A stretch of 44,520 nt of DNA from a virus: positions 1-44,520 of IMG/VR virus record IMGVR_UViG_3300044941_000125, one strand, 5' to 3'. A program made the translations under genes and the position numbers. Below, one piece after another: positions 1,467 through 27,681 of the stretch (the stretch's first letter is position 1; each line of letters starts with the position of its first letter). Below the pieces are notes generated by a model. It saw only the letters and a list, made by a program, of their open reading frames with translations. It did no database searches and was not told the origin of the DNA.

Positions 1467-2510
1467 TTAAAATTTCATAAAACTTATTATATGCCTGACT
1501 ACTTCTACATTAAAAGCGTTTCCCAACATTTTATATCTTTGTGTATTACTTACACCTTCTGTGTAGTTGTCATCTAACGATTGAAGTCTCTCACATTCTA
1601 TGGGGGTTAGTTTTCTAATTACATAGTCATTCATCACCATTGAATCGGTTTGAACTGTTGTTAGCGCGTTTGCCTTATCACCACCTATTTCTGGCTTCTT
1701 GCCTTCTCCACGATTGCGTAGTGCTACTGCATACAACCCAGTCTTTGCACCCCTACCACCACCGAGAGCAGACAGTGTAGTTGATTTTCCTTCAGGTGAA
1801 TAAACCCTGTCTCCTTGACCAAAATTTCTTGAATAATTTTTGCCATCTTTGGCCCAATCCTTATTCCTAATCCCACCAATAAAATTAAGTTCTTTTTTAA
1901 TGTTAGATTGAGAACCAATTAAAACAACATTTTGTAAAAAATACTTTTCATCAACATTTTCTTCTAAAACATCCTTGAGCAAAATACCTCTGTCCTCTGG
2001 TTGTAGTATATCAACCTTGACATATTTATCACCGAATCTTGACCCAACCCAAAATAGCCTTTTTCTGTTCTGGGCTGATACAAGTGCCGCATTTATCATT
2101 ACGAGTTCTACGCCTAAAGTTTGCGAGATTATCTCTTTATCTTTCTTTGGCATGCTTGACACATTTTCCAGCACAAAAAATCTAGGTTTTACTTCCTTTA
2201 AGATACGGACATACTCCCAAAATAGACTACTTTTTTCTCCATCTAATCCCTTGCGGTCTTTTTTAGCAATCGACAAGTCTTGGCAAGGCGAGCCACCAAT
2301 TAATAAATCAGGATTGTTAATTTCTGGATACTTAGTTAGTGATATTTCTCTAACATCCCCAAGCTGGATTGTGTCTGGATAATTCTTTTGTGCAATTTGG
2401 ATAGCGTATTTATCTATTTCGCTTGCATAATATTTATCAATCTTAATTCCACCTCTCTCCAAAGCCACTCTAGCACAAGATATTCCGTCAAATAGACTAA
2501 GAACTTTCAT
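1467..2510 (-). CDS. C5-cytosine DNA methyltransferase (orphan)
   Basis: A 347-residue DNA (cytosine-5) methyltransferase that transfers a methyl group from SAM to cytosine in DNA. Motif I is LFDGISC (residues 6-12), the catalytic Cys sits in GGSPCQ (Cys76), motif VI is ENV (115-117), motif VIII is QNRKR (147-151), and motif IX-X is near the end (RYKMLGNAFN). The variable target-recognition stretch lies around residues 190-270. No restriction endonuclease is adjacent, so self-protection against host restriction or regulation by methylation is more likely than a complete R-M system. The target sequence cannot be read from the protein. Confidence 0.93.
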   Translation of the reverse strand: MKVLSLFDGISCARVALERGGIKIDKYYASEIDKYAIQIAQKNYPDTIQLGDVREISLTKYPEINNPDLLIGGSPCQDLSIAKKDRKGLDGEKSSLFWEYVRILKEVKPRFFVLENVSSMPKKDKEIISQTLGVELVMINAALVSAQNRKRLFWVGSRFGDKYVKVDILQPEDRGILLKDVLEENVDEKYFLQNVVLIGSQSNIKKELNFIGGIRNKDWAKDGKNYSRNFGQGDRVYSPEGKSTTLSALGGGRGAKTGLYAVALRNRGEGKKPEIGGDKANALTTVQTDSMVMNDYVIRKLTPIECERLQSLDDNYTEGVSNTQRYKMLGNAFNVEVVRHIISFMKF

Positions 2511-2538
2511 TTTACTCTTTTATTGCTTCAATTTTTAA

Positions 2539-2826
2539 TTAAATTTCCAAATATGCTCTTGTTTCTATTAATTTATTTAACAATTCTTCAATCTGGTTAT
2601 TGTGTTGTTGTACCATATTAAATAATTGAGACGAACCAGTAGGGATTATTGGTTCTTTTTGTTCAGGTTGCCCATTTTCAATCTGACTTGATACAATGTC
2701 TATTTTCTTAATCAATTCTCCAACTTCTTCGTTTAATTGACTAAGTAATCTTTGTTGATTATTTAACACCACCATAATCGGGCTTATTTTAATTTCTGAT
2801 GACGCATTTGTAATTGTGTTTTGCAT
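2539..2826 (-). CDS. coiled-coil hypothetical protein (95 aa)
   Basis: A small, Gln- and Asn-rich protein with heptad-like hydrophobic spacing (LLSQLNEEVGELIKKIDIV and IEELLNKLIETRAYLEI) and a Pro-rich linker in the middle, so probably two short coiled coils. No catalytic motif is visible. Its start follows AGAAAGGATC, a good ribosome site. It lies 28 bases upstream of the methyltransferase start on the minus strand and may be co-expressed with it. Function unknown. Confidence 0.75.
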   Translation of the reverse strand: MQNTITNASSEIKISPIMVVLNNQQRLLSQLNEEVGELIKKIDIVSSQIENGQPEQKEPIIPTGSSQLFNMVQQHNNQIEELLNKLIETRAYLEI

Positions 2827-2940
2827 TAAGATCCTTTCTGCCTTTTGGCTATATTATTTTAATTAAATATCTCTTACTTGCTCAAATAAGCGTTTTTAAT
2901 CTCCTAATCTCAAGCTCCTATTAAAGGCTGAGTTAGAGGA

Positions 2941-4221
2941 CTAAGACTCTATTTCTAAATTATTGTATTCTTCCTTTGTAAGATTGAGTTTCCAGCTCAT
3001 ACTTAAATCTGCATCTTTCTTTTCTCCCACTTCTGGATCAATTCCTGAGAAGTAAACCCTGCCCGTACTCGGACAAGTGTATTTTAGAAAGTAGGCGTCT
3101 TGTGAAAAAACATTCTTTAACAGATAAAGCTCATTGCCTCTTTTGCTTTTATCAAGCAAAGTAGCTTGTTCAATAATCTTCTCCACTCCATGAAGTTTTA
3201 ATGCTGCCATTCTTTGCTCCATATTTTTAATGTTTAGAATGGTTTTACAGGTTGCTCGTTTACTGGTTACTTTCTTATACAGCTTTTCTTTAAATATAAC
3301 CCCATAAAGGCTATACATTCCCCAACCATCGGCATATTTAACCGCCATACCTGTTTCAGAGTGTAGTTTTCCTTCCTTCCATTCTATCTGTGGGTTTTCT
3401 GAGACAAAGGCAATTCCATAATAAGGAATAATAAACGAAACATTGGTAACAAAATCCATGAATATCTTAAAGATTTTATTATCAAATTTTACTCCAATAT
3501 ATTTTGCATAGTCGTACCATCCCGCCCAAACTAACCACCAGAAAACCAGTAACCAATTACTATTTATGTTGCTAAGCTGACTACGAAGCTGATTATCAAG
3601 TTGAATATCAAGTTGACTATGAAGCTGGCTATCAAGCTGGTTATCAAGCTGACTACGAAGCTCATTAATAAGCTGATTATTAAGCTGACTACGAAGCTGG
3701 CTGTGAAGCTGACCATAAAGCTGGCTACGAAGCTGGCTATGAAGCTCACTACTAAGCTGGCTACGAAGCTGGTTAATAAGCTGGCTACGAAGCCGATTAT
3801 CAAGTTGAATATCAAGCTGGTTATAAAGCTGATTATTAAGCTGATTATAAAGCTGGTTATCAAGCTGGTTATAAAGCTGACTATAAAGCTGACTATCAAA
3901 CTGACTACTAAGCTGGCTACGAAGCTGAATATGAAGCTGACTATAAATATGACTATTAAGCTCATTGCTAAGATAACTACCATCTTTTACTAATTTGTTT
4001 TCAAATAAAATCTTGGTCATAAAAGCCATATTGGCAGTAGCAAGTGGAGATTGACCAAAAATAACAATAGGTTTTTTAAACCCAGCATTCTCATATAAGT
4101 CTTGTACTGCTTTTGTTGCTTTAACCCTATTGGTTGGTTGAGAGGCTAGAGAAACATATTTTTCAATAAATTCTGGTATTTTAGCTTTTTGTTCTGGCGT
4201 TAGTTTATTGATTATTGCCAT
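2941..4221 (-). CDS. DUF6745-type protein with tetrapeptide repeat insert
   Basis: The N-terminus (LTPEQKAKIPEFIEKYVSLA, then a GQSPLA segment) and the C-terminal half (HSETGMAVKYADGWGMYSLY, later PSTGRVYFSG) match DUF6745 as I remember it. In that family an SVWDSV-like repeat often fills the middle. Here residues about 85-218 are instead a period-4 repeat of the form (S/N)QL(R/D/H/Y), followed by a Trp-rich stretch. The function of the family is not known. The gene is followed on the circle map by its typical small partner (4241-4534), which lies just upstream in transcription. Confidence 0.8.
   Translation of the reverse strand: MAIINKLTPEQKAKIPEFIEKYVSLASQPTNRVKATKAVQDLYENAGFKKPIVIFGQSPLATANMAFMTKILFENKLVKDGSYLSNELNSHIYSQLHIQLRSQLSSQFDSQLYSQLYNQLDNQLYNQLNNQLYNQLDIQLDNRLRSQLINQLRSQLSSELHSQLRSQLYGQLHSQLRSQLNNQLINELRSQLDNQLDSQLHSQLDIQLDNQLRSQLSNINSNWLLVFWWLVWAGWYDYAKYIGVKFDNKIFKIFMDFVTNVSFIIPYYGIAFVSENPQIEWKEGKLHSETGMAVKYADGWGMYSLYGVIFKEKLYKKVTSKRATCKTILNIKNMEQRMAALKLHGVEKIIEQATLLDKSKRGNELYLLKNVFSQDAYFLKYTCPSTGRVYFSGIDPEVGEKKDADLSMSWKLNLTKEEYNNLEIES
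3571..3962 (-). repeat. 12-bp tandem repeat inside the DUF6745 gene
   Basis: About 32 degenerate copies of a 12-base unit (AAGCTGRYTAYR on the plus strand) encode the tetrapeptide (S/N)QLx. Third-base and fourth-residue variation shows it is an old, diversified array rather than a fresh expansion. Copy-number slippage would keep frame. Open frames on both strands over this array are by-products of the repeat. Confidence 0.85.
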
Positions 4222-7126: not shown

Positions 7127-7765
7127 CTAAAATGGTACATCTTCCTCATCTTCGTCCTCAATGTTTGTTTCTACAGCTATGCTTGTGTCTTCCTCTTCTG
7201 TACCGTAGATGAACTCACTTAAATCAATGTCCTTACCTTTAGCTAGTTCTTGCTGTTCTGAGCTACTAAGAGCTTTTGTTTCAGCACTATCCACTACAGA
7301 GAGGGAATAGTAATCAGCTCCGGGTTTTTCGGTGCGAATAACAATAATGTCTCGATCTAAAATTTTGACACCAAGTTGAATTTGATCTTCGATTTTGTCT
7401 CGAACAGACTTAGTTGTTTGGAACACCTCAAAAAGACCAGTTTCTCGGTTAATAATAGGAAAGTAAAAAGAAATTGTTGGCTTAAATGGTTTCGTTAGAC
7501 GATCTTTTTCTTTTTGATCGACAGCATCTTTTTTAGCTTTTGCTAAAACTTTGAAATAGTTGTTGCAAATCTCACACTCTTTTCCCTCATTGATGCGAGG
7601 ACAGGGGACTATATTCCAGTTGCCTTGTTCGTCTTTGAGAAAGTGCTTTCCATCATAAAATGGGGCTTTAACAATTCTAAATTGGATTTTATCACCTTTA
7701 CTCTTTAGTTTGGTGAATTTTGAATACCCTGTAGAGAAAATTTCTCCAAATTGTAGTTCTGGCAT
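7127..7765 (-). CDS. single-stranded DNA-binding protein (gp32-like)
   Basis: A 212-residue protein with an OB-like core, a metal-binding type cluster (PCPRINEGKECEICNNY, three Cys in CX8CX2C spacing) and a strongly acidic tail ending EDEDEEDVPF, the hallmark of SSB proteins that recruit partners by their C-terminus. Phage gp32-like SSBs often carry such a Cys cluster. It would coat ssDNA during replication and RecA-driven recombination. It follows the helicase gene in the replication operon. Its leader CCAAGAAAGATACAA resembles the shared translation leader of three other genes. Confidence 0.8.
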   Translation of the reverse strand: MPELQFGEIFSTGYSKFTKLKSKGDKIQFRIVKAPFYDGKHFLKDEQGNWNIVPCPRINEGKECEICNNYFKVLAKAKKDAVDQKEKDRLTKPFKPTISFYFPIINRETGLFEVFQTTKSVRDKIEDQIQLGVKILDRDIIVIRTEKPGADYYSLSVVDSAETKALSSSEQQELAKGKDIDLSEFIYGTEEEDTSIAVETNIEDEDEEDVPF

Positions 7766-7814
7766 TTGTATCTTTCTTGGCGTCTTAACACCTTTGTTGG
7801 TACTGTAATGTATT

Positions 7815-8030
7815 TTACATTAATGCTTGAATAATTGCAAGGACAAAATCATCTTTTTCAAGCTCTTTTGCGCACAGTGCGACATCGAGCGCAAACTCAA
7901 CTCTTGCATACTCTGGATGTCCATAATGATACAAAAACCATTCTCGAATCTTCTCGATAGTATTATCGAGTTCTTCTGGGGTGAGGAGATAGTAGTTTTT
8001 ACAGTGATAGTTGTTTTTCTGGATCGACAT
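7815..8030 (-). CDS. hypothetical protein (71 aa)
   Basis: A small protein (start MSIQKNNYHCKNYYLLTPEE, later ELEKDDFVLAIIQALM) starting 32 bases inside the 3' end of the helicase gene, implying translational coupling. Mostly helical with no known motif. A helicase accessory or loader role is possible from position alone. Confidence 0.65.
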   Translation of the reverse strand: MSIQKNNYHCKNYYLLTPEELDNTIEKIREWFLYHYGHPEYARVEFALDVALCAKELEKDDFVLAIIQALM

Positions 8031-8937
8031 AGTCTTGTATACCTTTTCTTGCAGAGTCTACAAACATTCCTGTTTCAGTCAAAATTGCAAGTGAAATGTA
8101 TTTATCCATTCCAGTTCTTCTTGACTTATCAACCCAAATCTTGACTGTTTTTTCTTTTGACTCAATATGTCCTTCTTTCTCAGGGTCTTCTGTTCTATTG
8201 ATAGATAAAAAAAAGTCGCACTTTGCTACAACTGAGACTGATCCAGCCATGTCTTCTTTTTTGATGATCTTTTTTTTATAGCCCTCTTTGTTGGATTGAA
8301 CAAGAATAAACATCCAAACATCATCGTAGGTGTTTCTGATAAACTTAAACACCTCTCCCCATTCCTCAGACACCTGTTGGTTTCTATCATTCACAGAAGC
8401 TCCTGGGATTTCGTGGAAGTGGTCGAACAAAAATACTCTAATCCCTTTGTCATATAACTCTTTAAACTTATCTAGAAAACCGCTTGTGGTTATTTGATTG
8501 TCTGATTGAGTATAGTCAATGATTGTTGGTTGTATCTGTTTTATTTTTGAAACACCCAGCGAGAAGTCTGTAGCATACAAAAAGTCTTCATACGACATAT
8601 TGGAATAACTCTGGAGCATGCGTTTTTTAATACCTTGGTAATCCATTTCAAGAGAGAAGATAGCGCTACGCAGTCCATTCAACTCCCAAGCAACGTACAC
8701 TAAATAAGTCATAAACCAAGACTTACCAGCACCAGATTGGCCTGCTATTAGGTTCATGCCTGTAGGAACACCGCCTTTATCTAGTTTATCAATTCCAATC
8801 TTGAGTGTTGGGTAGTGTTTTACTCTTAAGAGGTCTTCAACACTCTCATTCCCCATATTTATTTCAAGAGGGGCTGATGAAACATCGCTTACAGCTTTGT
8901 TTGCAATAATCTCGGCTAATCTTTTCTGGTGTTTCAT
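7999..8937 (-). CDS. dnaB: DnaB-like replicative helicase
   Basis: A 312-residue RecA-fold ATPase of the DnaB/gp4 helicase group. The Walker A is GQSGAGKS (66-73), the H1/Walker B region is RVFLFDHFHE, and a sensor-like strand MFILVQSNKEG follows. Only the C-terminal helicase domain is present: the N-terminal collar domain of host DnaB is missing, leaving about 45 residues before the core. It would unwind DNA 5' to 3' at the phage fork. Its start overlaps the primase-like gene by ATGA, and the two proteins likely act together. Confidence 0.88.
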   Translation of the reverse strand: MKHQKRLAEIIANKAVSDVSSAPLEINMGNESVEDLLRVKHYPTLKIGIDKLDKGGVPTGMNLIAGQSGAGKSWFMTYLVYVAWELNGLRSAIFSLEMDYQGIKKRMLQSYSNMSYEDFLYATDFSLGVSKIKQIQPTIIDYTQSDNQITTSGFLDKFKELYDKGIRVFLFDHFHEIPGASVNDRNQQVSEEWGEVFKFIRNTYDDVWMFILVQSNKEGYKKKIIKKEDMAGSVSVVAKCDFFLSINRTEDPEKEGHIESKEKTVKIWVDKSRRTGMDKYISLAILTETGMFVDSARKGIQDYVDPEKQLSL

Positions 8938-9554
8938 GAGAGCTCCTTGACTGCTGTTACAAAGTCTATGTTTCTTGTTTTTTGAATAAAGCTAATAGCA
9001 TCTCCATACTCACCACAACCAAAACATCGGTATTTATTATCAGAGAAAATAGTAAAAGAGGGTGTTTTCTCGCTGTGAAACGGACATAGTCCTACAAATT
9101 TATTGCCTACACGCTTTAGATCACCCTCAAAAAGGTCTTCGATTGGAAACTCCCTAGCTCTTTGTATATCATCATCGCTTAAGCTGTTTTTAGGGTATTC
9201 TATGAGCTTCTCGTTTGTTGTTAACTCATAGAGCCTGCTCCAATATCGAAGCCATTTCTTAATTATTTTTGTTTCCTCGTAGGCTATACCCTCAAGGTAG
9301 CTCCAGAAAAAGACGCTGTCGCTGTCCCATTTTCCAGCAACAGCAACATTTTTTATGTAGCGATAGTTGTTAGTAAACCGAGACTTAACCTCAGTAAACC
9401 GATCAATAAGTTCTCCTATTTTCTCCTCAGCGGTCAGGTACAGCGAGTCTGGCATAAACTCTAAATCAATCTTTGGTGGTGATATGAAAGTAAATGAGTC
9501 TTTGTAGCGTCTTACATAATCTAGTTCTGGTATTGTTCTTGCAATGTAGTTCAT
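8934..9554 (-). CDS. primase zinc-finger (CHC2) protein lacking the catalytic domain
   Basis: A 206-residue protein. The last 60 residues are a DnaG-type zinc-binding domain (LCPFHSEKTPSF with Cys157/His160, YRCFGCGEYGD with Cys177/Cys180) and the protein stops at the end of that domain (FVTAVKELS). No TOPRIM or RNA-polymerase fold follows, so it cannot be a full primase. Residues 1-130 are helical and unrecognised. It may guide host primase or act with the helicase. Its ATG lies directly at the left edge of the TnpB element, so the ribosome site formerly inside the upstream gene has been replaced by element DNA. Confidence 0.82.
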   Translation of the reverse strand: MNYIARTIPELDYVRRYKDSFTFISPPKIDLEFMPDSLYLTAEEKIGELIDRFTEVKSRFTNNYRYIKNVAVAGKWDSDSVFFWSYLEGIAYEETKIIKKWLRYWSRLYELTTNEKLIEYPKNSLSDDDIQRAREFPIEDLFEGDLKRVGNKFVGLCPFHSEKTPSFTIFSDNKYRCFGCGEYGDAISFIQKTRNIDFVTAVKELS

Positions 9555-9573
9555 ACAATATAAGCCAAAGAAA

Positions 9574-9596
9574 CTATCAGGTCTTTAGCCCGATAG
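9574..9596 (+). repeat. left-end imperfect palindrome of the TnpB element
   Basis: CTATC (9574-9578) pairs with GATAG (9592-9596) around AGG-TCTTTAG-CC. A second stem AGAGGA/TCCTCT (9595-9617) followed by T residues lies just inside. Y1 transposases of this family recognise such subterminal hairpins. Confidence 0.75.
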
Positions 9597-9643
9597 AGGA
9601 ATTGGCCTGTATCCTCTTTTAGTATATGATAATATAACTCTAT

Positions 9644-10756
9644 ATGCAATTGTCTATTAAAGTTAAACTTATTCCGACACAAGAACAAAGAGATGTTCTT
9701 TTGAAAACGATTAAGACATACAATGATGCCTGTAATTTTGTTTCTCAAATAGCTTTTGAGAATAAAACTGCTTCTGTGGTAAAAATCCACCATAAATGTT
9801 ACTACGAAATCCGTAAAAGATTTAACCTTTCTTCTCAAATGGCAGTAAGAGTGGTGGGTAAAGTTGCCGATGCATATAAAGTGGCGAGAAATAAAAAACT
9901 TCAACTTAAAAAACCTCATAAGTTTGCTAAATATGGAGCTATTGTTTATGACCAGCGTATTTTTTCTTGGAAGGGACTTGAAAAGGTTTCTATTCTTACT
10001 TTGGAAGGCAGACAAGTTATTCCCATTGTTTTTGGAGAATATCAACAAATTAAACTTCGGTTTCCCCGTAGAGGACAAGCAGACCTTATTTATCAAAATG
10101 GAAACTTTTATTTGATGCCTATTGTAGATATTCCAGAACCACCCCAAAAAATAAGCAAAGATTTTCTTGGAGTTGATTTGGGAGTAGTTAATCTTGCTGT
10201 TGATAGTAAGGGTGAGTTTTATTCGGGAAAGGGGGTGGAAAAGAAAAGAATAAAACTTGATAAACTTAAATCTGCTTTGCAAAAATGTGGAAGTAAATCT
10301 GCTAAAAGACATCTTAAAAAATTGTCTGGTAAAGAAAGCAGATTTAGAACTTGGATAAACCACAACATTAGCAAGAAGATTGTTGAAAAGGCTAAAAGGC
10401 ACTCTTTGAGTATTGCCATTGAAAACTTGACGGGAATACGCCAAAGAGCAACTGTTAGAAAAAGCCAACGGAGACAATATTCTTCTTGGGCGTTTAATCA
10501 GTTGAGAAGATTTTTGGAATACAAATCCAAACTTGCGGGGATTGTTTTGAAAGCTGTTGACCCTCACTATACTTCTCAAAAATGCTCTAATTGTGGTTAT
10601 GTTGCTAAACATAATCGTAAAAATCAATCAAACTTTTCTTGTAAGTCGTGTGGCTTCTCCGTCCACGCCGACCTAAACGGAGCGATTAACATCGCTCAAT
10701 TGGCAAAAGTAAACCTGCCAATCGTAGCCCCCGCAAGGGGAGTTACAAGCCACTAG
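9644..10756 (+). CDS. tnpB: TnpB, RNA-guided DNA nuclease
   Basis: A complete 370-residue TnpB, the ancestor-type of Cas12 nucleases. RuvC residues are all present: Asp178 (LGVDLGVVNLA), Glu260 (IAIENLTG) and Asp343 (HADLNGAINIA). A zinc ribbon (CSNC 314-317, CKSC 333-336) sits between the last two. Family members use an RNA from the element's right end to cut DNA next to a short motif equal to the left-flank target. The stop codon TAG lies in the right-end hairpin. A possible promoter is TTGGCC-N17-TATGAT (9603-9631). It is transcribed against the replication operon it interrupts. Confidence 0.95.
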   Translation: MQLSIKVKLIPTQEQRDVLLKTIKTYNDACNFVSQIAFENKTASVVKIHHKCYYEIRKRFNLSSQMAVRVVGKVADAYKVARNKKLQLKKPHKFAKYGAIVYDQRIFSWKGLEKVSILTLEGRQVIPIVFGEYQQIKLRFPRRGQADLIYQNGNFYLMPIVDIPEPPQKISKDFLGVDLGVVNLAVDSKGEFYSGKGVEKKRIKLDKLKSALQKCGSKSAKRHLKKLSGKESRFRTWINHNISKKIVEKAKRHSLSIAIENLTGIRQRATVRKSQRRQYSSWAFNQLRRFLEYKSKLAGIVLKAVDPHYTSQKCSNCGYVAKHNRKNQSNFSCKSCGFSVHADLNGAINIAQLAKVNLPIVAPARGVTSH

Positions 10757-10780
10757 GTCTTTAGCCTAGTGGTGGTTTAC
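10650..10780 (+). ncRNA. predicted omega/reRNA scaffold of TnpB
   Basis: By family rule the guide RNA comes from the tnpB 3' end and right end; its scaffold should stop at the element border (10780), and the guide would be the flank from 10781 (AACTTACCCTCATC...). The visible structural part is the strong stem CCACTAGG/CCTAGTGG (10750-10772). The 5' boundary given here is a guess. Confidence 0.45.
10750..10772 (+). repeat. right-end palindrome of the TnpB element
   Basis: Perfect 8-bp stem CCACTAGG/CCTAGTGG with loop TCTTTAG. It contains the tnpB stop codon and shares the loop core with the left-end hairpin. Confidence 0.85.
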
Positions 10781-11244
10781 AACTTACCCTCATCAAGCAT
10801 AATTTCTGCATCAATTCTTGAGATTGGCGTGTTAGCAAACTGAGCAAACATGGTTGCGGCAGTAATTTTTTCCTCATCTGACATACTCTTTTTTAGTGTC
10901 ACCGTGGCACACTCTCTAAGAACAGCCATGTAGTCTGACTTAGTTCTACCAGCAGCGTCTAGTTTGTTTAGCTTTTGAGTAAAGAACCAGTAGAGCTGGT
11001 AGGGTCTAACACCAAACTCCCTTGCAACACTTCTAATGTGTTCTTGCTTAATTGAGTCTTTAGTTGGGTAATCAGAGGTAGGTTTCCCTGACTCAACCAG
11101 TGTTGCCCAGTCCATCACTCCTGAATCAGCAATACCAAGAACTCTGTCTACTTCCTGCTCAAGCCTATCACCCATCAACCAAGGTTTAGTTCTACGTAAT
11201 TCTTTTTTAACCTTATAACGCCTGCGTTTTTCTAGGTAGTTCAT
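10777..11244 (-). CDS. replication-operon hypothetical protein (155 aa), 3' end rewritten by the TnpB element
   Basis: A helical, charged protein (start MNYLEKRRRYKVKKELRR) with VAREFGVRPYQLYWFFTQKL, which could be a DNA- or protein-contact helix pair. No family recognised. It overlaps the initiator gene by ATGA and precedes the primase-like gene. Its last codon and stop (TTG TAA) are partly element DNA; in the reconstructed uninterrupted locus they would be TTA TGA, still Leu then stop, so the protein is unchanged. A loader or replisome organiser role is suggested by position only. Confidence 0.75.
   Translation of the reverse strand: MNYLEKRRRYKVKKELRRTKPWLMGDRLEQEVDRVLGIADSGVMDWATLVESGKPTSDYPTKDSIKQEHIRSVAREFGVRPYQLYWFFTQKLNKLDAAGRTKSDYMAVLRECATVTLKKSMSDEEKITAATMFAQFANTPISRIDAEIMLDEGKL
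10896..10910. promoter_or_regulatory. dispersed palindrome copy
   Basis: GTGTCA-CCG-TGGCAC within gene 10777-11244. Confidence 0.6.
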
Positions 11245-11951
11245 CTATTCCTTCCACCAGAATCATACTTACCTTTAGAAACATCTTCCGACACCCAAGA
11301 GTTGAGGAGTGCGTAGGGTTTCGCAACCCATTTTTGATTAGCCGTCATGTAACTAGCTAGGTTCTCAGCAGTACGAGCAACTTCAGACTCATACAATCCA
11401 TGTCTTACAGCAATCGATTTAAAATAAGGCTTACAACTATTAAAAACATCGGAAATGGTTACTTCCTTGTCGGATTTCTTTTCTTGTGTGTGGGGGCTAC
11501 CACACACACTCTTATAATCTGTATTACTATTAGGTATAGGTGCGACACTTCTGTCGCTTTGATTTCTCTTTATAGTCGTTTCGATTTCCCGATTTCGGGA
11601 AATGGAAATGTAGGATTCGAGAAATGGGTTATTGCCGAGTGCATACCATTTTGTTCTATCATATTTAACCTTGTTGAAGTTTCCACTTTCTAAATAGTTC
11701 TTTTCTTCTAGTTTTTTGATAATTCTCTCTATCTGTTTTTTACTAAGCCAAACAAACTGTCTTGAAAAAGCGAGTGCTGAATTGTATGTCCACCATTTTC
11801 CATTATGGAAAGAGCTTTTATTATCTCTATCCATCTGGTTTGCTTGGTTTTTATCTATCCAATAAGCTATGTTTTCAAGAATAATTGCCGCATCTGTTCC
11901 CACATCTTTTGCTATGTCTGGGTTGAAGCTCATTTTTACAAGTGTTTTCAT
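11241..11951 (-). CDS. phage replication initiator (winged-helix, replisome-organiser type)
   Basis: A 236-residue protein. The N-terminal winged-helix (NPDIAKDVGTDAAIILENIA, then HNGKWWTYNSALAF, FVWLSKKQIERIIKKLEEKN) is typical of phage initiator/replisome organiser proteins that bind the phage origin. A polar linker follows, and a C-terminal helical domain (VFNSCKPYF... YALLNSWVSEDVSKG) resembles DnaD-like partner-binding domains. It is the first gene of the replication operon, 75 bases downstream of an attenuator-like leader. The origin may lie within this gene's linker or the adjacent non-coding region, but no iterons are obvious in either. Confidence 0.82.
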   Translation of the reverse strand: MKTLVKMSFNPDIAKDVGTDAAIILENIAYWIDKNQANQMDRDNKSSFHNGKWWTYNSALAFSRQFVWLSKKQIERIIKKLEEKNYLESGNFNKVKYDRTKWYALGNNPFLESYISISRNREIETTIKRNQSDRSVAPIPNSNTDYKSVCGSPHTQEKKSDKEVTISDVFNSCKPYFKSIAVRHGLYESEVARTAENLASYMTANQKWVAKPYALLNSWVSEDVSKGKYDSGGRNR

Positions 11952-12026
11952 AATTCACCCTCCATTTCTGTGTGTCTTACTTTTAATCATATTTATCTTT
12001 TTTACCTTGTAAGCATAATGAGATAC

Positions 12027-12117
12027 AAAAAACCGCCTCTATCACCTGCCAACCTCCCTAAAGAAGTTTTTGCCAAACTTAAAAAGGATGGCATGTGATA
12101 GAAGCGGTTGCTTCTAT
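12027..12117 (-). terminator. attenuator-like leader of the replication operon
   Basis: In the minus-strand RNA, AACCGCTTCTATCACATGCC (12109-12090) can pair with GGCAGGTGATAGAGGCGGTT (12050-12031; 18 of 20) followed at once by six U (12032-12027): an intrinsic terminator. The same first arm can instead pair with the immediately upstream ATAGAAGC (12117-12110), an 8-bp stem with a 4-base loop, which would break the terminator. The loop holds a further small stem AAGTTT/AAACTT. Mutually exclusive stems are the classic attenuator layout. Confidence 0.7.
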
Positions 12118-12125
12118 TAAACTGT

Positions 12126-12134
12126 ATTATATCA
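12126..12134 (-). promoter_or_regulatory. extended -10 promoter for replication leader
   Basis: Minus strand TGATATAAT is a perfect extended -10 (TGnTATAAT). No good -35 is seen at the usual distance, which such promoters tolerate. RNA would start near 12119, just before the attenuator hairpins. Confidence 0.6.
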
Positions 12135-12146
12135 CTTCTTTAGGTT

Positions 12147-12220
12147 GCACGCCCTGTTTGGCAAAAGGGCTTGGGGTTAATTCCCCAACTTATGGTAGTG
12201 CTGGCTCATCATTAAATGAG
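12147..12220. other. cluster of stem-loops upstream of the replication leader
   Basis: GCAC/GTGC (12147-12150 with 12198-12201) encloses two stems: GCCCT/AGGGC with inner TTT/AAA (12151-12170), and TTGGGG-TTAATT-CCCCAA (12171-12188). A third stem CTCAT/ATGAG follows (12205-12220). This region plus the leader makes up the 475-base gap 11952-12426, which has no convincing gene. It may be a structured RNA or a replication origin; neither can be shown from sequence alone. Confidence 0.5.
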
Positions 12221-12335
12221 ACAATCTCTACTGTTTCATATTTTACTTAGAAAATCAACTAGATATTATTTAATCAAACCAATCTTCTTAAGAATACTTA
12301 AGCATTTCCCTAAAAAAATAACACAAACAAAAAAA

Positions 12336-12352
12336 CCCCAATATAAGTGGGG
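12336..12352 (-). terminator. bidirectional intrinsic terminator after recA
   Basis: CCCCA-ATATAAG-TGGGG with seven A on the left (T-run for minus-strand RNA at 12335-12329) and CTTTTT on the right. It ends the recombination operon 75 bases after the recA stop and also faces plus-strand transcription. Confidence 0.8.
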
Positions 12353-12426
12353 CTTTTTAGATTGCGTTTTCGTACTAACTTTTGATTAAAACCAAAACGA
12401 ATGCCTTGTATAATACTAAAAATGTT

Positions 12427-13377
12427 CTAGCTTGTCAATCCGAGTTTTTCTCTAAACGCTTTGTCTTTTAGTTTTTCCATAAGTCCTGTTTTACCTTTTG
12501 CAACTGCAACACCGTCAACCTTAAACCATGCCCCTGCTTTTTCTATCTTACCCTCACTAATAAGTACATCAATCAGCTCGCTAGTACCATCAATTCCGTC
12601 TTTTCCTATCTCATAAGTGGTAACAGTGTGCGGTGTTGCTAATTTGTTCTTTAAAACGACCATTTTACCTTTATCGGCAAGCCACTCATCACCAGACTTT
12701 CGTTTCCCAATAACACTCATTTCAATACGAAGACTGCTGTAGAACTTTAGAGCGACTCCACCAGTAGGTACTTTAGTTGCCCCATAACTACTAAAACCCG
12801 ATCGATATTGATTAATGAATACTAAGGCAGTGTTATTTTTGTGGCACGGTGACACTAATTTTCTCATTGCCTGACTCATCAACTTAGCATGAACTCCCAT
12901 AACACTATCACCATACCCCTTTTCAACCTCTGTTTGTGGAATGAGCGCTGCAACAGAATCCACTATAACTAGCCCCATACCACTGTTCATACCCATTTCT
13001 ATAAGTTCTAGAGCCTGTTCTGCGGTATCTGGCTGACTAATAATGAGTCTATCCAAATCAACACCAAGATGAGCCATTCTCTTTGGATCTAGGGCGTGTT
13101 CCATGTCTACATACAAACACCCAACGCCCATCTTTTGTGCTTGAACTACCGTGTGTAAACACAGTGTGGTTTTCGCAACTCCAGCATGACCTACTATTTC
13201 AGTAATTCTGCCTCTAGGGATACCGCCAATACCGAGCGCTTTATCTATATTTTCGATCCCTGTAGGGATAACAGCAACATCTAGAGTTTTACTACCACTA
13301 GCAAGGACTGCGATATTCTTACCAAACTCTCTTTCTGCCTCTGCTATAAACTTTTGTAGGTCGTCTATGTTAATCAC
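12427..13377 (-). CDS. recA: RecA-like recombinase with atypical P-loop
   Basis: A 316-residue RecA. VDMEHALDP, LVIVDSVAALIP (Walker B), FINQYRS and TGGVALKFYSSLRI (DNA-binding loop 2) are all recognisable. The Walker A reads GHAGVAKTT (63-71) where RecA normally has GPESSGKTT, so the P-loop Gly before Lys is Ala68 (codon GCG at 13176-13174). The protein is slightly shorter than bacterial RecA and lacks most of the acidic C-terminal tail. It is last in the recombination operon, overlapping the upstream gene by ATGA. It would perform strand exchange with the phage SSB and nuclease. Confidence 0.93.
   Translation of the reverse strand: MINIDDLQKFIAEAEREFGKNIAVLASGSKTLDVAVIPTGIENIDKALGIGGIPRGRITEIVGHAGVAKTTLCLHTVVQAQKMGVGCLYVDMEHALDPKRMAHLGVDLDRLIISQPDTAEQALELIEMGMNSGMGLVIVDSVAALIPQTEVEKGYGDSVMGVHAKLMSQAMRKLVSPCHKNNTALVFINQYRSGFSSYGATKVPTGGVALKFYSSLRIEMSVIGKRKSGDEWLADKGKMVVLKNKLATPHTVTTYEIGKDGIDGTSELIDVLISEGKIEKAGAWFKVDGVAVAKGKTGLMEKLKDKAFREKLGLTS
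12841..12855. promoter_or_regulatory. dispersed palindrome copy
   Basis: GTGGCA-CGG-TGACAC inside recA. Confidence 0.6.
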
Positions 13378-24200: not shown

Positions 24201-26565
24201 ACTCTGTCACCGTGACATCTCTTATTGGCTGTGGAAGGCTAAGAGTTTTAGGAGCGGGAAGTTGAAGGTTATCAGCTACTTTTAAATCGGGTTTATTTAT
24301 TAAGTTTAGTAAGTCCTCAATCTGCTTGGTTGATTCAATATTCACTTTAGGTTTAACTATACCTTTAGGCGTAGAAATGAAATCAGTTTTTGTGTTTTTA
24401 GCATTACTTAATAGTTTTTCTATCTCCCTAGACACCTTAGCTAGTTCTATTTTTGTTTCTTTAATACCCTCTTTAAGTGCTTTCTTATCAGGAACGAGCC
24501 GACCTGATTTCTTAATCAAATCATACTGTTTCATCATTATTTCTGATTGTTTAAGAGTTTCTTGAAGTTCCTTTTTGTAATCTGGAAGATAATCGAGAAT
24601 AGTTTTCACCCTCTCTGCTACTAAGTTGGTTGTTTTTGGCTGGAGTATTTCTTCTACAGTTGTAGGCTTAGTCGGCTTTTTTTTCTTCCCTCCATCAATA
24701 GTAATAGCTCCCCTTTGTAAGTATTGATCTCTTGTCAATCCTAACTCAGCGGCAACTTTATCGGCGTTTGCATCAAAATCAGCCTTACCAGCTTTAATAG
24801 TAGTCTTAATTGCTTCTTTATCAGCAGGATTGATGACTGATTTGACTTGCTTTTCTTCTATTTTACTAGGATTTAATACCTCATCAATGGTTTTGAGCTT
24901 AGTATTATTCTCTTGAGGTTTGATTTGGGTTTGTTGTGCTTTGTTCCAGATGTCGATGAGTTGGGATTTGGTTTTTGCTGGTTTAATTTTTATCTTATCA
25001 TAATTAAAAATAACAGATTGCTCGCCATCTGGCGAATATGATGCACTTACTCCATCATAACCTTTATCTTTTAGATATTGTTGCTCTAAACCAGACATTA
25101 TATCCCCAGTCATGGGGTCTTTATATGTCATAAGTTTCTTTGCTTTTTCCGTCTCTTGCCAGCTTTTGTGTGGTTTTTTTGTGCCGCTTAAATAAACAAT
25201 TTCTCCGTTTGGTTTTCTGGTTGTTTTATATTCAAAATATCCCCTATCTTTACCCCAATTTATTAACTCTGAACGAGTTGGATAATCTTCCGCTATTCTT
25301 AAATCTTTAGCATCTATTTCATAAACATAGTCTCTTTTACCAATTTGACCGCCACGCCATGTTTCACTATCTTTGGAAACATAAAATCCTTTTCCAAGTT
25401 GTCCTTGTTTTGGTGAGTAATTTGGGTCAATTTTTAGATTGGGGTTTTCAGAAACATGATAAAGTTTATTTTTTGTTTGGCTATTCACAAACTCCTCAGC
25501 ACTCTTATACTTCTTAGCTTCTTCTATGAGAGGATCGGTGGGTTTTTTACCATCGCCAATAGTAATTGCTCCCCTTTGTAAATATTGTTTTCTGGTTAAA
25601 CCCAATTCTGCAGCTCTTCTATCTATATCAGCGTCAATTTCTGCTTTACCTGTTTTAATTACTTTTGGAGCTAAACCTGCACCTTGTCGCACGCCACCAA
25701 TTAAGGCATTAGAGAGTAGGTCTGAAAGGAAGCGATCTCTATAGTTTTGTGCGTACCCACCACCACCCTTAGCAGTGTCTTGAGCCGCAAAGTATGCTGT
25801 TTCTAGCGGAGTTTCAGCAGCTTCTCTGATCGCACCTTTTACAATCTGTTTTGGAGCTTGTCTTACTATCTGATTAAAAGTTCCTTGTTTAATAGCATTT
25901 CCAGAAGCGCTCAGCGCATCATCAGTCAGACTACTCAGTCCTGGGATAGCTTTACTTCCTACTTTCAAAAGTTTATCTGCAACGGGGTTTGTAAGTGGAT
26001 AGATCCAAGAACCCTCAGCTCCTTGTATTGCACCCTCACGCACTCTATCTAAACTTGGTATTTGTCTTTGTATTAGATCGCCAATGGCAGAAGAACCACC
26101 ACCAAAAGCGGCGCCAATAGCGGCGTTTCTAGCCATAAGAGGAATGTTTCCACCAGCTATTTTCCCTGGAACTCCCATTGCATACCCAGTAAGAGTGCCA
26201 AGCGGGGCAGTAATTTGACCAGCAGTTGTTTTTGGTCTATATGAGGAAACCTCTGCATATTTTTCTGGAAGGTATTTTTCAAGACCACTATTACCAAGCT
26301 GACCACGAATATTAGCAGCGCCAAAACTAAGAAGCGCGTCTGCGGTTCTTTGAGCTAGTGGAGATTGTCTAAAAGCAGTGTCTATAGAACCACCAGGAGC
26401 AAAATTAGCTCTATTTTGAGCTTGCCAGTTACTAAAATTCTGCGCAATAGCTTGGTTTCTATCAATAGCGCTTTGGCGTGCATTACCAACAAAGTTACTT
26501 ATAGAATTACCAATAGCTTGCGCTGTTCCTATAGCTTTTTGTTTGATTCTTTCAAGAAGTAACAT
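21262..26565 (-). CDS. giant polyvalent protein with ADP-ribosyltransferase-like domain
   Basis: A 1,767-residue protein, the largest here. Gly/Ala-rich N-terminus; residues about 365-527 look like an ART domain (KLYHVSENPNLK, GKGFYVSKDSETW, VYEIDAKDLRI, YLKDKGYDGVSASYSPDGE, VIFNYDKIKIK). The domain is flanked by two copies of an ELGLTRxQYLQRGAIT module (about 300 and 590). Long helical segments follow, and an SGTRS repeat lies near the C-terminus (about 1697-1717). This layout fits polyvalent proteins delivered with DNA into the host, where the ART part would modify a host target. It may also be an internal ejection protein. No lysozyme or protease motif was seen. Confidence 0.75.
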   Translation of the reverse strand: MLLLERIKQKAIGTAQAIGNSISNFVGNARQSAIDRNQAIAQNFSNWQAQNRANFAPGGSIDTAFRQSPLAQRTADALLSFGAANIRGQLGNSGLEKYLPEKYAEVSSYRPKTTAGQITAPLGTLTGYAMGVPGKIAGGNIPLMARNAAIGAAFGGGSSAIGDLIQRQIPSLDRVREGAIQGAEGSWIYPLTNPVADKLLKVGSKAIPGLSSLTDDALSASGNAIKQGTFNQIVRQAPKQIVKGAIREAAETPLETAYFAAQDTAKGGGGYAQNYRDRFLSDLLSNALIGGVRQGAGLAPKVIKTGKAEIDADIDRRAAELGLTRKQYLQRGAITIGDGKKPTDPLIEEAKKYKSAEEFVNSQTKNKLYHVSENPNLKIDPNYSPKQGQLGKGFYVSKDSETWRGGQIGKRDYVYEIDAKDLRIAEDYPTRSELINWGKDRGYFEYKTTRKPNGEIVYLSGTKKPHKSWQETEKAKKLMTYKDPMTGDIMSGLEQQYLKDKGYDGVSASYSPDGEQSVIFNYDKIKIKPAKTKSQLIDIWNKAQQTQIKPQENNTKLKTIDEVLNPSKIEEKQVKSVINPADKEAIKTTIKAGKADFDANADKVAAELGLTRDQYLQRGAITIDGGKKKKPTKPTTVEEILQPKTTNLVAERVKTILDYLPDYKKELQETLKQSEIMMKQYDLIKKSGRLVPDKKALKEGIKETKIELAKVSREIEKLLSNAKNTKTDFISTPKGIVKPKVNIESTKQIEDLLNLINKPDLKVADNLQLPAPKTLSLPQPIRDVTVTEYKKLAESGSNLDGVRKVVVKNANEARDALKAGVPGNKIEILKKAQKSGKEMFAGEYGISKRIDQADQALKLVAKQATGGDIYTRNFVERIRALPKVLGGAWNDVNKQAYAPFKQAKGDAAKFKTEFNQRAQAITKASAGSKESEYIHKFGEGIVDYDKLVKEFGESGAERIKKASVEFKKLYQDGLKTINDRRIADGLEPIKERQNYFRHIGEMNSGFWESLASNKPTGSTGSSIAKQRKGEETIYDAVGNYSNWVEAAGKKGFLEAPAKNFARVTDILEKNGANPNAVKYLRDLTDEIAGTKVEEDLGEIGNIVVNSADAVGGTIRMNKILGNVSSLIAQFGNLPQALGKNWKNPKAIMLGLKNLNKNSDAMKASSFLADRFYNTPTQFIKGKIHKTRSVAGSALKKADELPTRYIWNMFYESQKTGSGIDMKAVKYADELTELMVAGRGVGDMAPAMQNRLVGTVLPFSVEWANAFHVMSEMVKRKEIGALSATLVLNHLFNKGAEALRGSPVLFDPIETIINSAEQWVGSDKKEKNEVRAIGRLLAGLSGAHPITHNLLAALYPIAKGAGAPPSREIFGSDDPTRFGSINMYTDAFTKGIPNMAANFSPVGGGSQAMKTAGGLKSWLDGYTTSASGNVMHEIDKNPLSLAQMAFFGKWATPKSKEFFDNDFTKPLNKKQSEVYRQADPSARSAIYNAAQNKNKIQAMFDSAKPSEGNWLSRFLSKEKSTIPDDFKPSNKAERDILKSYVDTMLEADQVPAENHLKQVLFDTKSIKTNMKDRKSVLKALNSAMTNEYYSDEQKAAILKASGVSQDQWEFYRIAAMDEKDALREVLPTLGDLSDPENFKRLALMKATLGERAIITNESVQWLYNNDYINKQQMEILKALKFDEFTGKFYFNKGSKWSGTRSSGTRSSGTRSSGTRSSGTNSKPKTLTFAQAKSFLDIPKLNKIGSIKRFDLGLGKTASLMQSVSRYRK
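21417..21478 (-). repeat. 15-bp tandem repeat with CTAG palindromes
   Basis: Four to five copies of a 15-base unit (CCACTAGACCTAGTR on the plus strand) coding SGTRS. Each unit contains the inverted repeat ACTAG-AC-CTAGT, so the array can also form small hairpins. Confidence 0.85.
24204..24218. promoter_or_regulatory. dispersed palindrome, variant copy
   Basis: CTGTCA-CCG-TGACAT inside the polyvalent gene; inner 13 bases are palindromic, outer bases differ from consensus. Confidence 0.5.
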
Positions 26566-26586
26566 ATAGCCCTCTATCTTAGAAGA

Positions 26587-27681
26587 CTATAATAAACCAG
26601 CTTGTCTTCTTCTAAGTAGCCTATCTTGATCTAATTGACTCTTACCTTCAAGCGCGAAATTAGTGTTTTCATTTCCTGGTCTACCGAATGCTGAAACTAT
26701 GGGATTAGCTAAGCCACTAAGTCCTTCAGTAAAGTCTTTTCCATATCCCTCATTAACATACCGCTGGAAGTTTTGGTTATTAATTCCAGCAAGCGCTGCA
26801 GCTAGCGCAGCTCTGTTGTTTTGAGCGTTTATCAGTAAGTTTTGTAATGTATTTAACCCCTCCTCACCTACAGCTCTTTGCGCTTGCGCGTACTGTCTTT
26901 CAATCTCACCTTTGTTCCAGTTAGCAGAAGCAACTTGGTCGTCAGCCCAGTTATTTCTTTCGTTAAATTGTGCTTGATTAGCTCCAAGATTCTTTTGCTG
27001 TACAGCAGATACATTTCCAAGTTGAGCTGATCGTTGTCCCTCATTTCTTCTTAGAGCTTCATCGAGTGCTGAACCACTAACCCCACTAGCCAACATTCGT
27101 CTTGTGGTCGCAGCGTCAGATCCACGAGCTGCTCCTTGCATAGCATTAAGAGCGTTATTATATGAAGCGTAATTTTCATCATCTGCTAATTGTTTTTGTT
27201 CTGTGAAGCCTTTTCTCTTATCATCAATAGCTTTAAGAATGTTGTCTACCATACTTAGTGCTGAATTCCTATTTCCACGAAGCTCATCTAATCTGCTAGC
27301 AATCATTCTGTTGATCTGTTCCATTCGAGTATCTTCTTGAGAATCGTTTATCTGTTTCCAGCCATCGGCAGCATCCCAAAACATTCCACTACGGTCTTCA
27401 ACACGAGTATTGCCACCGCCGCTCTGTTGTTGTTGGGTTGGTACTGGTTGTAAGAACTGACCAGTCATAGGATTAGTTTTTACAATGGGCTGACCATTCG
27501 AAGCTCCCAAAACACTATTTCTATAAAGTGGAGCCCCGTATGCGTTTACCTGATTAGAGACGCTAGTCATTGGTGTTTGATTTTGATAGTTTGCGTACCG
27601 TGGATCAGTATAACTAGACCCTTGAATGTATGAAGTTAATCCTCTTGCGATTGGGGGATTTGTTGGTCGTGGTGTTAACAT
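26587..27681 (-). CDS. internal virion / ejection-type protein
   Basis: A 364-residue protein. The N-terminal third is Pro/Gln/Asn-rich and disordered; residues about 120-310 are long Ala/Arg/Gln-rich helices (IASRLDELRGNRNSALSMVD, later NQAQFNERNNWADDQVASAN). This composition is typical of internal virion proteins of podoviruses that are ejected with DNA. The ribosome site is AAAGGAAAAC. It directly precedes the polyvalent protein, supporting a shared ejection role. Assignment rests on composition and context, not on a named family. Confidence 0.6.
   Translation of the reverse strand: MLTPRPTNPPIARGLTSYIQGSSYTDPRYANYQNQTPMTSVSNQVNAYGAPLYRNSVLGASNGQPIVKTNPMTGQFLQPVPTQQQQSGGGNTRVEDRSGMFWDAADGWKQINDSQEDTRMEQINRMIASRLDELRGNRNSALSMVDNILKAIDDKRKGFTEQKQLADDENYASYNNALNAMQGAARGSDAATTRRMLASGVSGSALDEALRRNEGQRSAQLGNVSAVQQKNLGANQAQFNERNNWADDQVASANWNKGEIERQYAQAQRAVGEEGLNTLQNLLINAQNNRAALAAALAGINNQNFQRYVNEGYGKDFTEGLSGLANPIVSAFGRPGNENTNFALEGKSQLDQDRLLRRRQAGLL

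What the first reader, a model, noticed from the sequence alone, without database searches (positions are those of the whole stretch)
9550..10800. TnpB guide predicted to target the uninterrupted replication locus of sister phages
Known TnpB biology: the guide is the flank right of the element, and cutting requires the left-flank motif (TAM). Here TAM would be TTCAT and guide AACTTACCCTCATCAAGC, exactly the reconstructed empty site. All RuvC and zinc residues are intact. In a co-infection, TnpB could cut element-free relatives in their replication operon, favouring spread of the element or excluding competitors.
Basis: partly seen in the sequence, partly recalled or inferred. Interest (0 to 1): 0.66.

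Follow-up and report, generated by a model that had tools for sequence, protein, structure and literature searches.

The report
Phage TnpB aimed at its empty site
A phage carries a small transposon-derived RNA-guided DNA cutter, apparently intact, whose guide matches the spot it occupies, so it should cut related phages that lack the element; this is known TnpB behaviour, but no element-free sister of this phage was found to test it on.

Summary
Observation confirmed, interpretation partly supported. The window holds a 1,226-bp tnpA-less IS200/IS605-type element (9555-10780) with an intact TnpB. Its RuvC triad (D178/E260/D343) and four zinc cysteines are invariant in 24 relatives. It has a predicted reRNA whose guide-adjacent helix (GTAAAC 10709-10714 / GTTTAC 10775-10780) covaries across the family, so the guide starts at 10781. 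The left flank TTCAT fits the family motif NTCAY. The two closest phage-borne relatives sit at GTCAT (91% identity) and TTCAT (79%), so the leading T is probably not strict. Rejoining the flanks restores an ATGA gene overlap with a Shine-Dalgarno at normal spacing.

Not shown: any element-free sister of this phage. A real counterpart exists elsewhere: Lactobacillus phage iLp1308 carries a related element, while CL1 (99.6% identical flanks, same host species) has the empty site with TAM CTCAT and a 20/20 guide match.

New detail: phage elements using TCAT sit mostly between the Shine-Dalgarno and the antisense start codon (16 of 22; background 17%), so the TAM is the start codon itself. TnpB cutting of element-free replicons is already published for plasmids, so this is a new member of a known kind.

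The parts
9550..9554 (+). TTCAT left flank = target/TAM of the element; its CAT is the antisense start codon of the gene at 8934-9554
   Evidence: Sequence; family consensus NTCAY in 39 cellular/mixed and 45 phage-borne junctions; true empty site in a relative
9555..10780 (+). complete IS200/IS605-type element without tnpA (1,226 bp)
   Evidence: Left end by homology and ATGA/SD reconstruction; right end by covarying reRNA helix; no Y1 transposase in the record
9564..9606 (+). left-end imperfect hairpin: inner stem 9574-9596, outer GCCAA/TTGGC
   Evidence: Fold; same position as in relatives
9644..10756 (+). tnpB, 370 aa, RNA-guided nuclease
   Evidence: Pfam PF07282 and PF01385, NCBIfam NF040570, AlphaFold model pLDDT 87 matching Cas12f and TnpB structures
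10175..10177 (+). RuvC catalytic D178
   Evidence: Invariant in 24/24 relatives
10421..10423 (+). RuvC catalytic E260
   Evidence: Invariant in 24/24 relatives
10583..10651 (+). zinc-finger cysteines C314, C317, C333, C336
   Evidence: Invariant in 24/24 relatives
10670..10672 (+). RuvC catalytic D343
   Evidence: Invariant in 24/24 relatives
10709..10714 (+). 5' arm GTAAAC of the guide-adjacent reRNA helix, inside the tnpB ORF
   Evidence: Covaries with 10775-10780 across the family; GTC to GTA synonymous change against the 91% relative
10724..10773 (+). two reRNA scaffold hairpins, 10724-10746 and 10749-10773
   Evidence: MFE -37.2 kcal/mol, z -5.8 for 10709-10798
10775..10780 (+). 3' arm GTTTAC and right terminus of the element; also gives the upstream gene its present stop codon (TAA, 10777-10779)
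10781..10798 (+). predicted guide AACTTACCCTCATCAAGC, left unpaired in the fold; complementary to the ribosome-binding-site leader of the gene at 8934-9554 in the empty allele
8934..9554 (-). 206-aa protein with C-terminal CHC2 zinc ribbon (replication gene); its start codon abuts the element and its native SD is displaced
10777..11244 (-). upstream replication-operon gene of unknown function; its last codons encode the guide region
   Evidence: no family match

Best explanation
This is a tnpA-less IS200/IS605 (IS1341-type) element whose TnpB takes its guide from the phage DNA right of the element and cuts DNA in which that sequence follows NTCAT, that is, the same locus without the element. 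The occupied genome is safe because its guide match is preceded by TTTAC. In a cell that also holds element-free copies (after excision, or a co-infecting sister phage) the cut would remove those copies or be repaired from the element-bearing copy, favouring the element. Shown here: element ends, motif, reRNA fold with covariation, intact nuclease residues. Inferred: expression, cleavage, existence of sister targets, homing versus exclusion.
For: NCBIfam guided_TnpB well over cut-off. Catalytic and zinc residues invariant. Model resembles solved Cas12f and TnpB complexes: 8j12, 8iaz, 8h1j, 8exa. Guide-adjacent helix pairs in 54 of 75 non-redundant elements, versus shuffled mean 16.8 and maximum 28; control segments downstream 5-9%. 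Guide left unpaired in a strong fold, z -5.8. NTCAY at the junctions; closest phage relatives GTCAT and TTCAT. Exact empty site in a relative. Own genome has no second match of the guide with a TCAT within 3 mismatches. Sister-phage case iLp1308/CL1 with TAM CTCAT and 20/20 guide match. Published mechanism: ISDra2 TnpB cuts the donor joint (PMC8612924); TnpB removes IS-free plasmids (PMC11870625).
Against: No element-free sister of this phage was found. No RNA or cleavage data. No tnpA in the record, so how the element arrives is unexplained. The left end is unlike that of the 91% relative and may be degenerate. The 91% relative sits in a phage with no detectable relative of this phage's zinc-ribbon protein or terminase, at another site, which shows movement but not homing into an allelic site.
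Confidence: 0.62

Rival explanations
1. Retention only: TnpB acts just on the empty donor site left after TnpA excises the element (peel, paste and copy), and co-infecting phages play no part.
For: This is the proposed role of ISDra2 TnpB (PMC8612924); Y1 transposases that could act in trans occur in some genomes with related elements.
Against: No TnpA in this phage record. The same guide cuts any copy of the site, so the two roles are not exclusive. Multi-copy replicons gain most (PMC11870625).
Confidence: 0.2
2. Passenger: the element is immobile and silent in this phage, and TnpB has no present effect.
For: tnpA-less; left end diverged from the 91% relative; insertion displaces the native Shine-Dalgarno of a replication gene, a likely cost.
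Against: Full-length ORF with all catalytic residues; compensatory synonymous change keeps the reRNA helix; many phage-borne relatives (474 of the stretches matched).
Confidence: 0.14
3. RNA-level or binding-only action: the guide, antisense to the ribosome-binding site of the target gene, represses the element-free allele without cutting (TldR-like or antisense RNA).
For: Guide is complementary to the SD and leader just upstream of the start codon; nuclease-dead TldR repressors exist in phages (PMC13418256).
Against: The RuvC triad is intact, unlike TldR.
Confidence: 0.04

Closest known systems
ISDra2 TnpB (IS200/IS605; Karvelis 2021, PMC8612924)
   Same: RuvC and zinc-finger architecture, right-end reRNA overlapping the ORF, guide from the right flank, TAM equal to the target motif
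   Different: TAM TTGAT versus NTCAT here; ISDra2 has its own tnpA; low sequence identity; here carried by a phage
TnpB gene drive on plasmids (Mears 2025, PMC11870625)
   Same: Predicted cutting of element-free copies of the same replicon, favouring element-bearing ones
   Different: Shown for plasmids in E. coli; here a phage, untested
TnpB element of Lactobacillus phage iLp1308
   Same: Related TnpB (32%), TCAT junction, GTTGAC right end with a matching upstream GTCAAC; sits between the erf and ssb genes; element-free sister CL1 exists
   Different: Interrupts a coding gene in the sense direction rather than sitting at an antisense start codon
Homing endonucleases of phages (established knowledge)
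   Same: Cut the allele that lacks the element, giving spread or marker exclusion
   Different: RNA-guided, reprogrammed at each new site; not an intron
TldR repressors of phages (PMC13418256)
   Same: TnpB-derived, phage-encoded, right-end guide RNA
   Different: TldR has lost the nuclease residues; here they are intact

Membership tests
RNA-guided TnpB nuclease | TnpB domain architecture above curated cut-offs | tested here: met
   NF040570 197.8 bits (cut-off 100), PF07282 86.9 (26.3), PF01385 45.7 (30.5)
RNA-guided TnpB nuclease | Intact RuvC D/E/D and CxxC...CxxC zinc finger | tested here: met
   Invariant in 24/24
RNA-guided TnpB nuclease | Structured reRNA from ORF 3' end plus right end, followed by the guide | tested here: met
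   Fold z -5.8 and helix covariation; transcript itself not testable
RNA-guided TnpB nuclease | TAM-dependent DNA cleavage | not testable with these tools
   Needs biochemistry or plasmid interference
IS200/IS605 element (IS1341-type, tnpB only) | Sub-terminal hairpins and site-specific junction without target duplication | tested here: met
   Hairpins; NTCAY junction; clean empty site in a relative
IS200/IS605 element (autonomous member) | Y1 transposase tnpA within the element | tested here: not met
   None in the record; so a non-autonomous tnpB-only element
TldR (nuclease-dead TnpB repressor) | Loss of RuvC catalytic residues | tested here: not met
   Triad intact
Type V CRISPR (Cas12f) | Adjacent CRISPR array | tested here: not met
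   No repeat array in 7500-12500
Inter-replicon gene drive / homing system | Element-free allele with matching TAM and guide target in related replicons | tested here: inconclusive
   None found for this phage; present for iLp1308/CL1

The most novel reading that the evidence does not exclude
Phage-borne TnpB elements of this clade are interference-competition devices. They settle between a phage gene's Shine-Dalgarno and its antisense start codon, so the TAM (rc ATG) cannot mutate in rivals without losing the start codon, and they cut element-free sister phages during co-infection.
Probability: 0.3. Interest if true: 0.75.

Novelty: new member of a known kind. Interest (0 to 1): 0.5.

Why it matters
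TnpB is the ancestor of Cas12, and why it persists on mobile elements is an open question. A role in phage-phage competition would explain its frequency in phages and would parallel homing-endonuclease marker exclusion. The pair iLp1308/CL1 makes the question testable now. The start-codon siting suggests why targets cannot easily escape.

Tried and rejected
Sister phages of the window: protein searches with the zinc-ribbon protein, upstream gene and DnaB and a degenerate empty-site DNA scan. The scan's hits are unrelated gene pairs sharing a DEGKL-stop/ATGA junction, and their number is roughly what I estimate chance would give. DNA search of the element in annotated phages: none. Rfam: no match. 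CRISPR array next to tnpB: none. Early idea that the element begins a few bases further in, at a CCTC motif, because two near-identical copies differ between CAT and CCTC: rejected by the real purS-purQ empty site. Idea that elements systematically supply an outward Shine-Dalgarno: seen in several cellular copies but not in the window, and in few phage copies (4 of 19, versus 11 of 19 for the empty leader); not pursued.

Full report
WHAT IS THERE. The window is a 44,520-base viral record. Between two genes of a leftward replication operon lies a 1,226-bp insertion, 9555-10780, in the opposite orientation. The flanking genes are 10777-11244 (unknown function) and 8934-9554 (206 aa, C-terminal CHC2 zinc ribbon), followed by a DnaB-like helicase. 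The insertion carries one gene, tnpB (9644-10756, 370 aa), a left hairpin and a right-end structure. The record has no Y1 transposase and no CRISPR array nearby.

THE PROTEIN. It passes the curated cut-offs of NCBIfam guided_TnpB and two Pfam TnpB families. D178, E260, D343 and C314/C317/C333/C336 are invariant among 24 relatives of 35-91% identity. An AlphaFold model (pLDDT 87) matches solved Cas12f and TnpB-RNA-DNA complexes. It is therefore not a nuclease-dead TldR by sequence.

THE RIGHT END AND GUIDE. The last six bases of the element, GTTTAC (10775-10780), pair with GTAAAC (10709-10714) inside the ORF. In the 91% relative the pair is GTCAAC/GTTGAC; the coding change GTC to GTA is synonymous (Val) and restores pairing. 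Across 75 non-redundant relatives 54 form this helix, in ten pair combinations, against a shuffled mean of 16.8 (maximum 28) and 5-9% in control segments. In some relatives the motif lies in another reading frame, so I infer that selection acts on the RNA. Folding 10709-10798 gives -37.2 kcal/mol (z -5.8) with the last 18 bases unpaired. Related sequences are not independent, so the shuffle figure is not a probability.

THE LEFT END AND TAM. In 39 curated junctions of cellular and mixed relatives the four bases left of the element are TCAT or TCAC in 38. In 51 phage-borne relatives found by profile search, 45 have TCAY at the expected place, against 1,056 of 4,903 background windows. The fifth base is T in only about half. 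The closest relatives sit at GTCAT (91%, read across the ends of its contig) and TTCAT (79%). For one relative a real empty site exists: purS-purQ in sister genomes reads TTCAT|GAATGACTCCC, exactly the joined flanks. In the window the joined flanks give GGT AAG TTA TGA with ATG overlapping, as at neighbouring gene junctions, and put GAGGG before the start codon, whereas the occupied allele has no recognisable Shine-Dalgarno there. The reconstruction is therefore well supported. The strict TAM is probably NTCAT.

TARGETS. The occupied genome has the guide match only behind TTTAC, so it should be spared. Sister phages of this genome were not found. Elsewhere the predicted situation is real: Lactobacillus phage iLp1308 carries a related element at CTCAT|GAAATCGTATACGCGCGAGA between erf and ssb, and CL1 (99.6% identical flanks, same host species) has that site uninterrupted with 20/20 matches. 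J-1 and R23.9 have two mismatches (positions 4, 16) and LJ three.

MECHANISM. Established TnpB biology (PMC8612924) says the nuclease cuts the empty site when TAM and guide match. In plasmids this removes IS-free copies and drives the IS to fixation (PMC11870625). Applied here, a co-infecting element-free sister would be cut at the start of a replication gene, and would either be lost or be repaired from the element-bearing copy. The second outcome needs homology and recombination; the phage encodes a RecA-like protein. I consider nuclease activity likely, and action against sister phages plausible but unshown.

AN UNEXPECTED REGULARITY. Among phage-borne relatives with a TCAT junction, 21 of 24 open an antisense ORF of at least 40 codons from that ATG (background 637 of 1,606). 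Where the right end could be set, 16 of 22 look like true starts, against 267 of 1,606 (Fisher p about 1e-8). Several reconstructed leaders show textbook Shine-Dalgarno sequences, for example AATAGGAGGCAAG-ATG in L214 and AAGAAAGGAGCGAAAAA-ATG in L229. TCAC junctions show no such bias (7 of 20 open 40 codons; background 461 of 1,035). The simplest reading is survivorship: insertion just before the ATG leaves the coding sequence whole. Its consequence is that the TAM coincides with a start codon. Limits: small sample, junctions assigned by rule, relatives not independent.

NOVELTY. The element is a new member of a known kind. I found no paper in the held library on TnpB in phage-phage competition or on start-codon siting, but most subscription papers are not held, including Meers 2023.

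Noticed in passing
L168-L247 (phage-borne relatives), window 9550-9554: TCAT-type TnpB elements of this clade sit between Shine-Dalgarno and antisense start codon (16/22 against 17% background); TCAC-type ones do not.
   Followed up: partly
L156 (iLp1308), L159 (CL1), L160-L162: Natural isogenic-like phage pair with and without a TnpB element, perfect TAM and guide match in CL1: a ready test system.
   Followed up: yes
L002 / L030 (IMGVR_UViG_3300045912_000306): A 91%-identical TnpB element lies in a phage without detectable relatives of the window's zinc-ribbon protein or terminase; the contig ends overlap by 127 bases, so it is probably a complete circular or terminally redundant genome, and the left flank is only visible at the other end.
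   Followed up: yes
L005 and L006, left ends: Two near-identical elements differ at most of the five bases directly after the CAT junction while the next 80 bases are nearly the same; unexplained.
   Followed up: no
window 8934-9554: The 'primase' has its CHC2 zinc ribbon at the C-terminus of a 206-aa protein with no TOPRIM domain recognised; the polymerising subunit may be elsewhere.
   Followed up: no
window 1467-4221: A C5 cytosine methyltransferase (1467-2510, minus strand), and at 2941-4221 a protein with a weak match to a type I specificity subunit.
   Followed up: no
L031 (phage contig IMGVR_UViG_3300037137_001787): The same contig that carries the 39% TnpB relative also has a separate IS200-like tnpA at 26389-26754, apparently followed by another tnpB-like frame.
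   Followed up: partly
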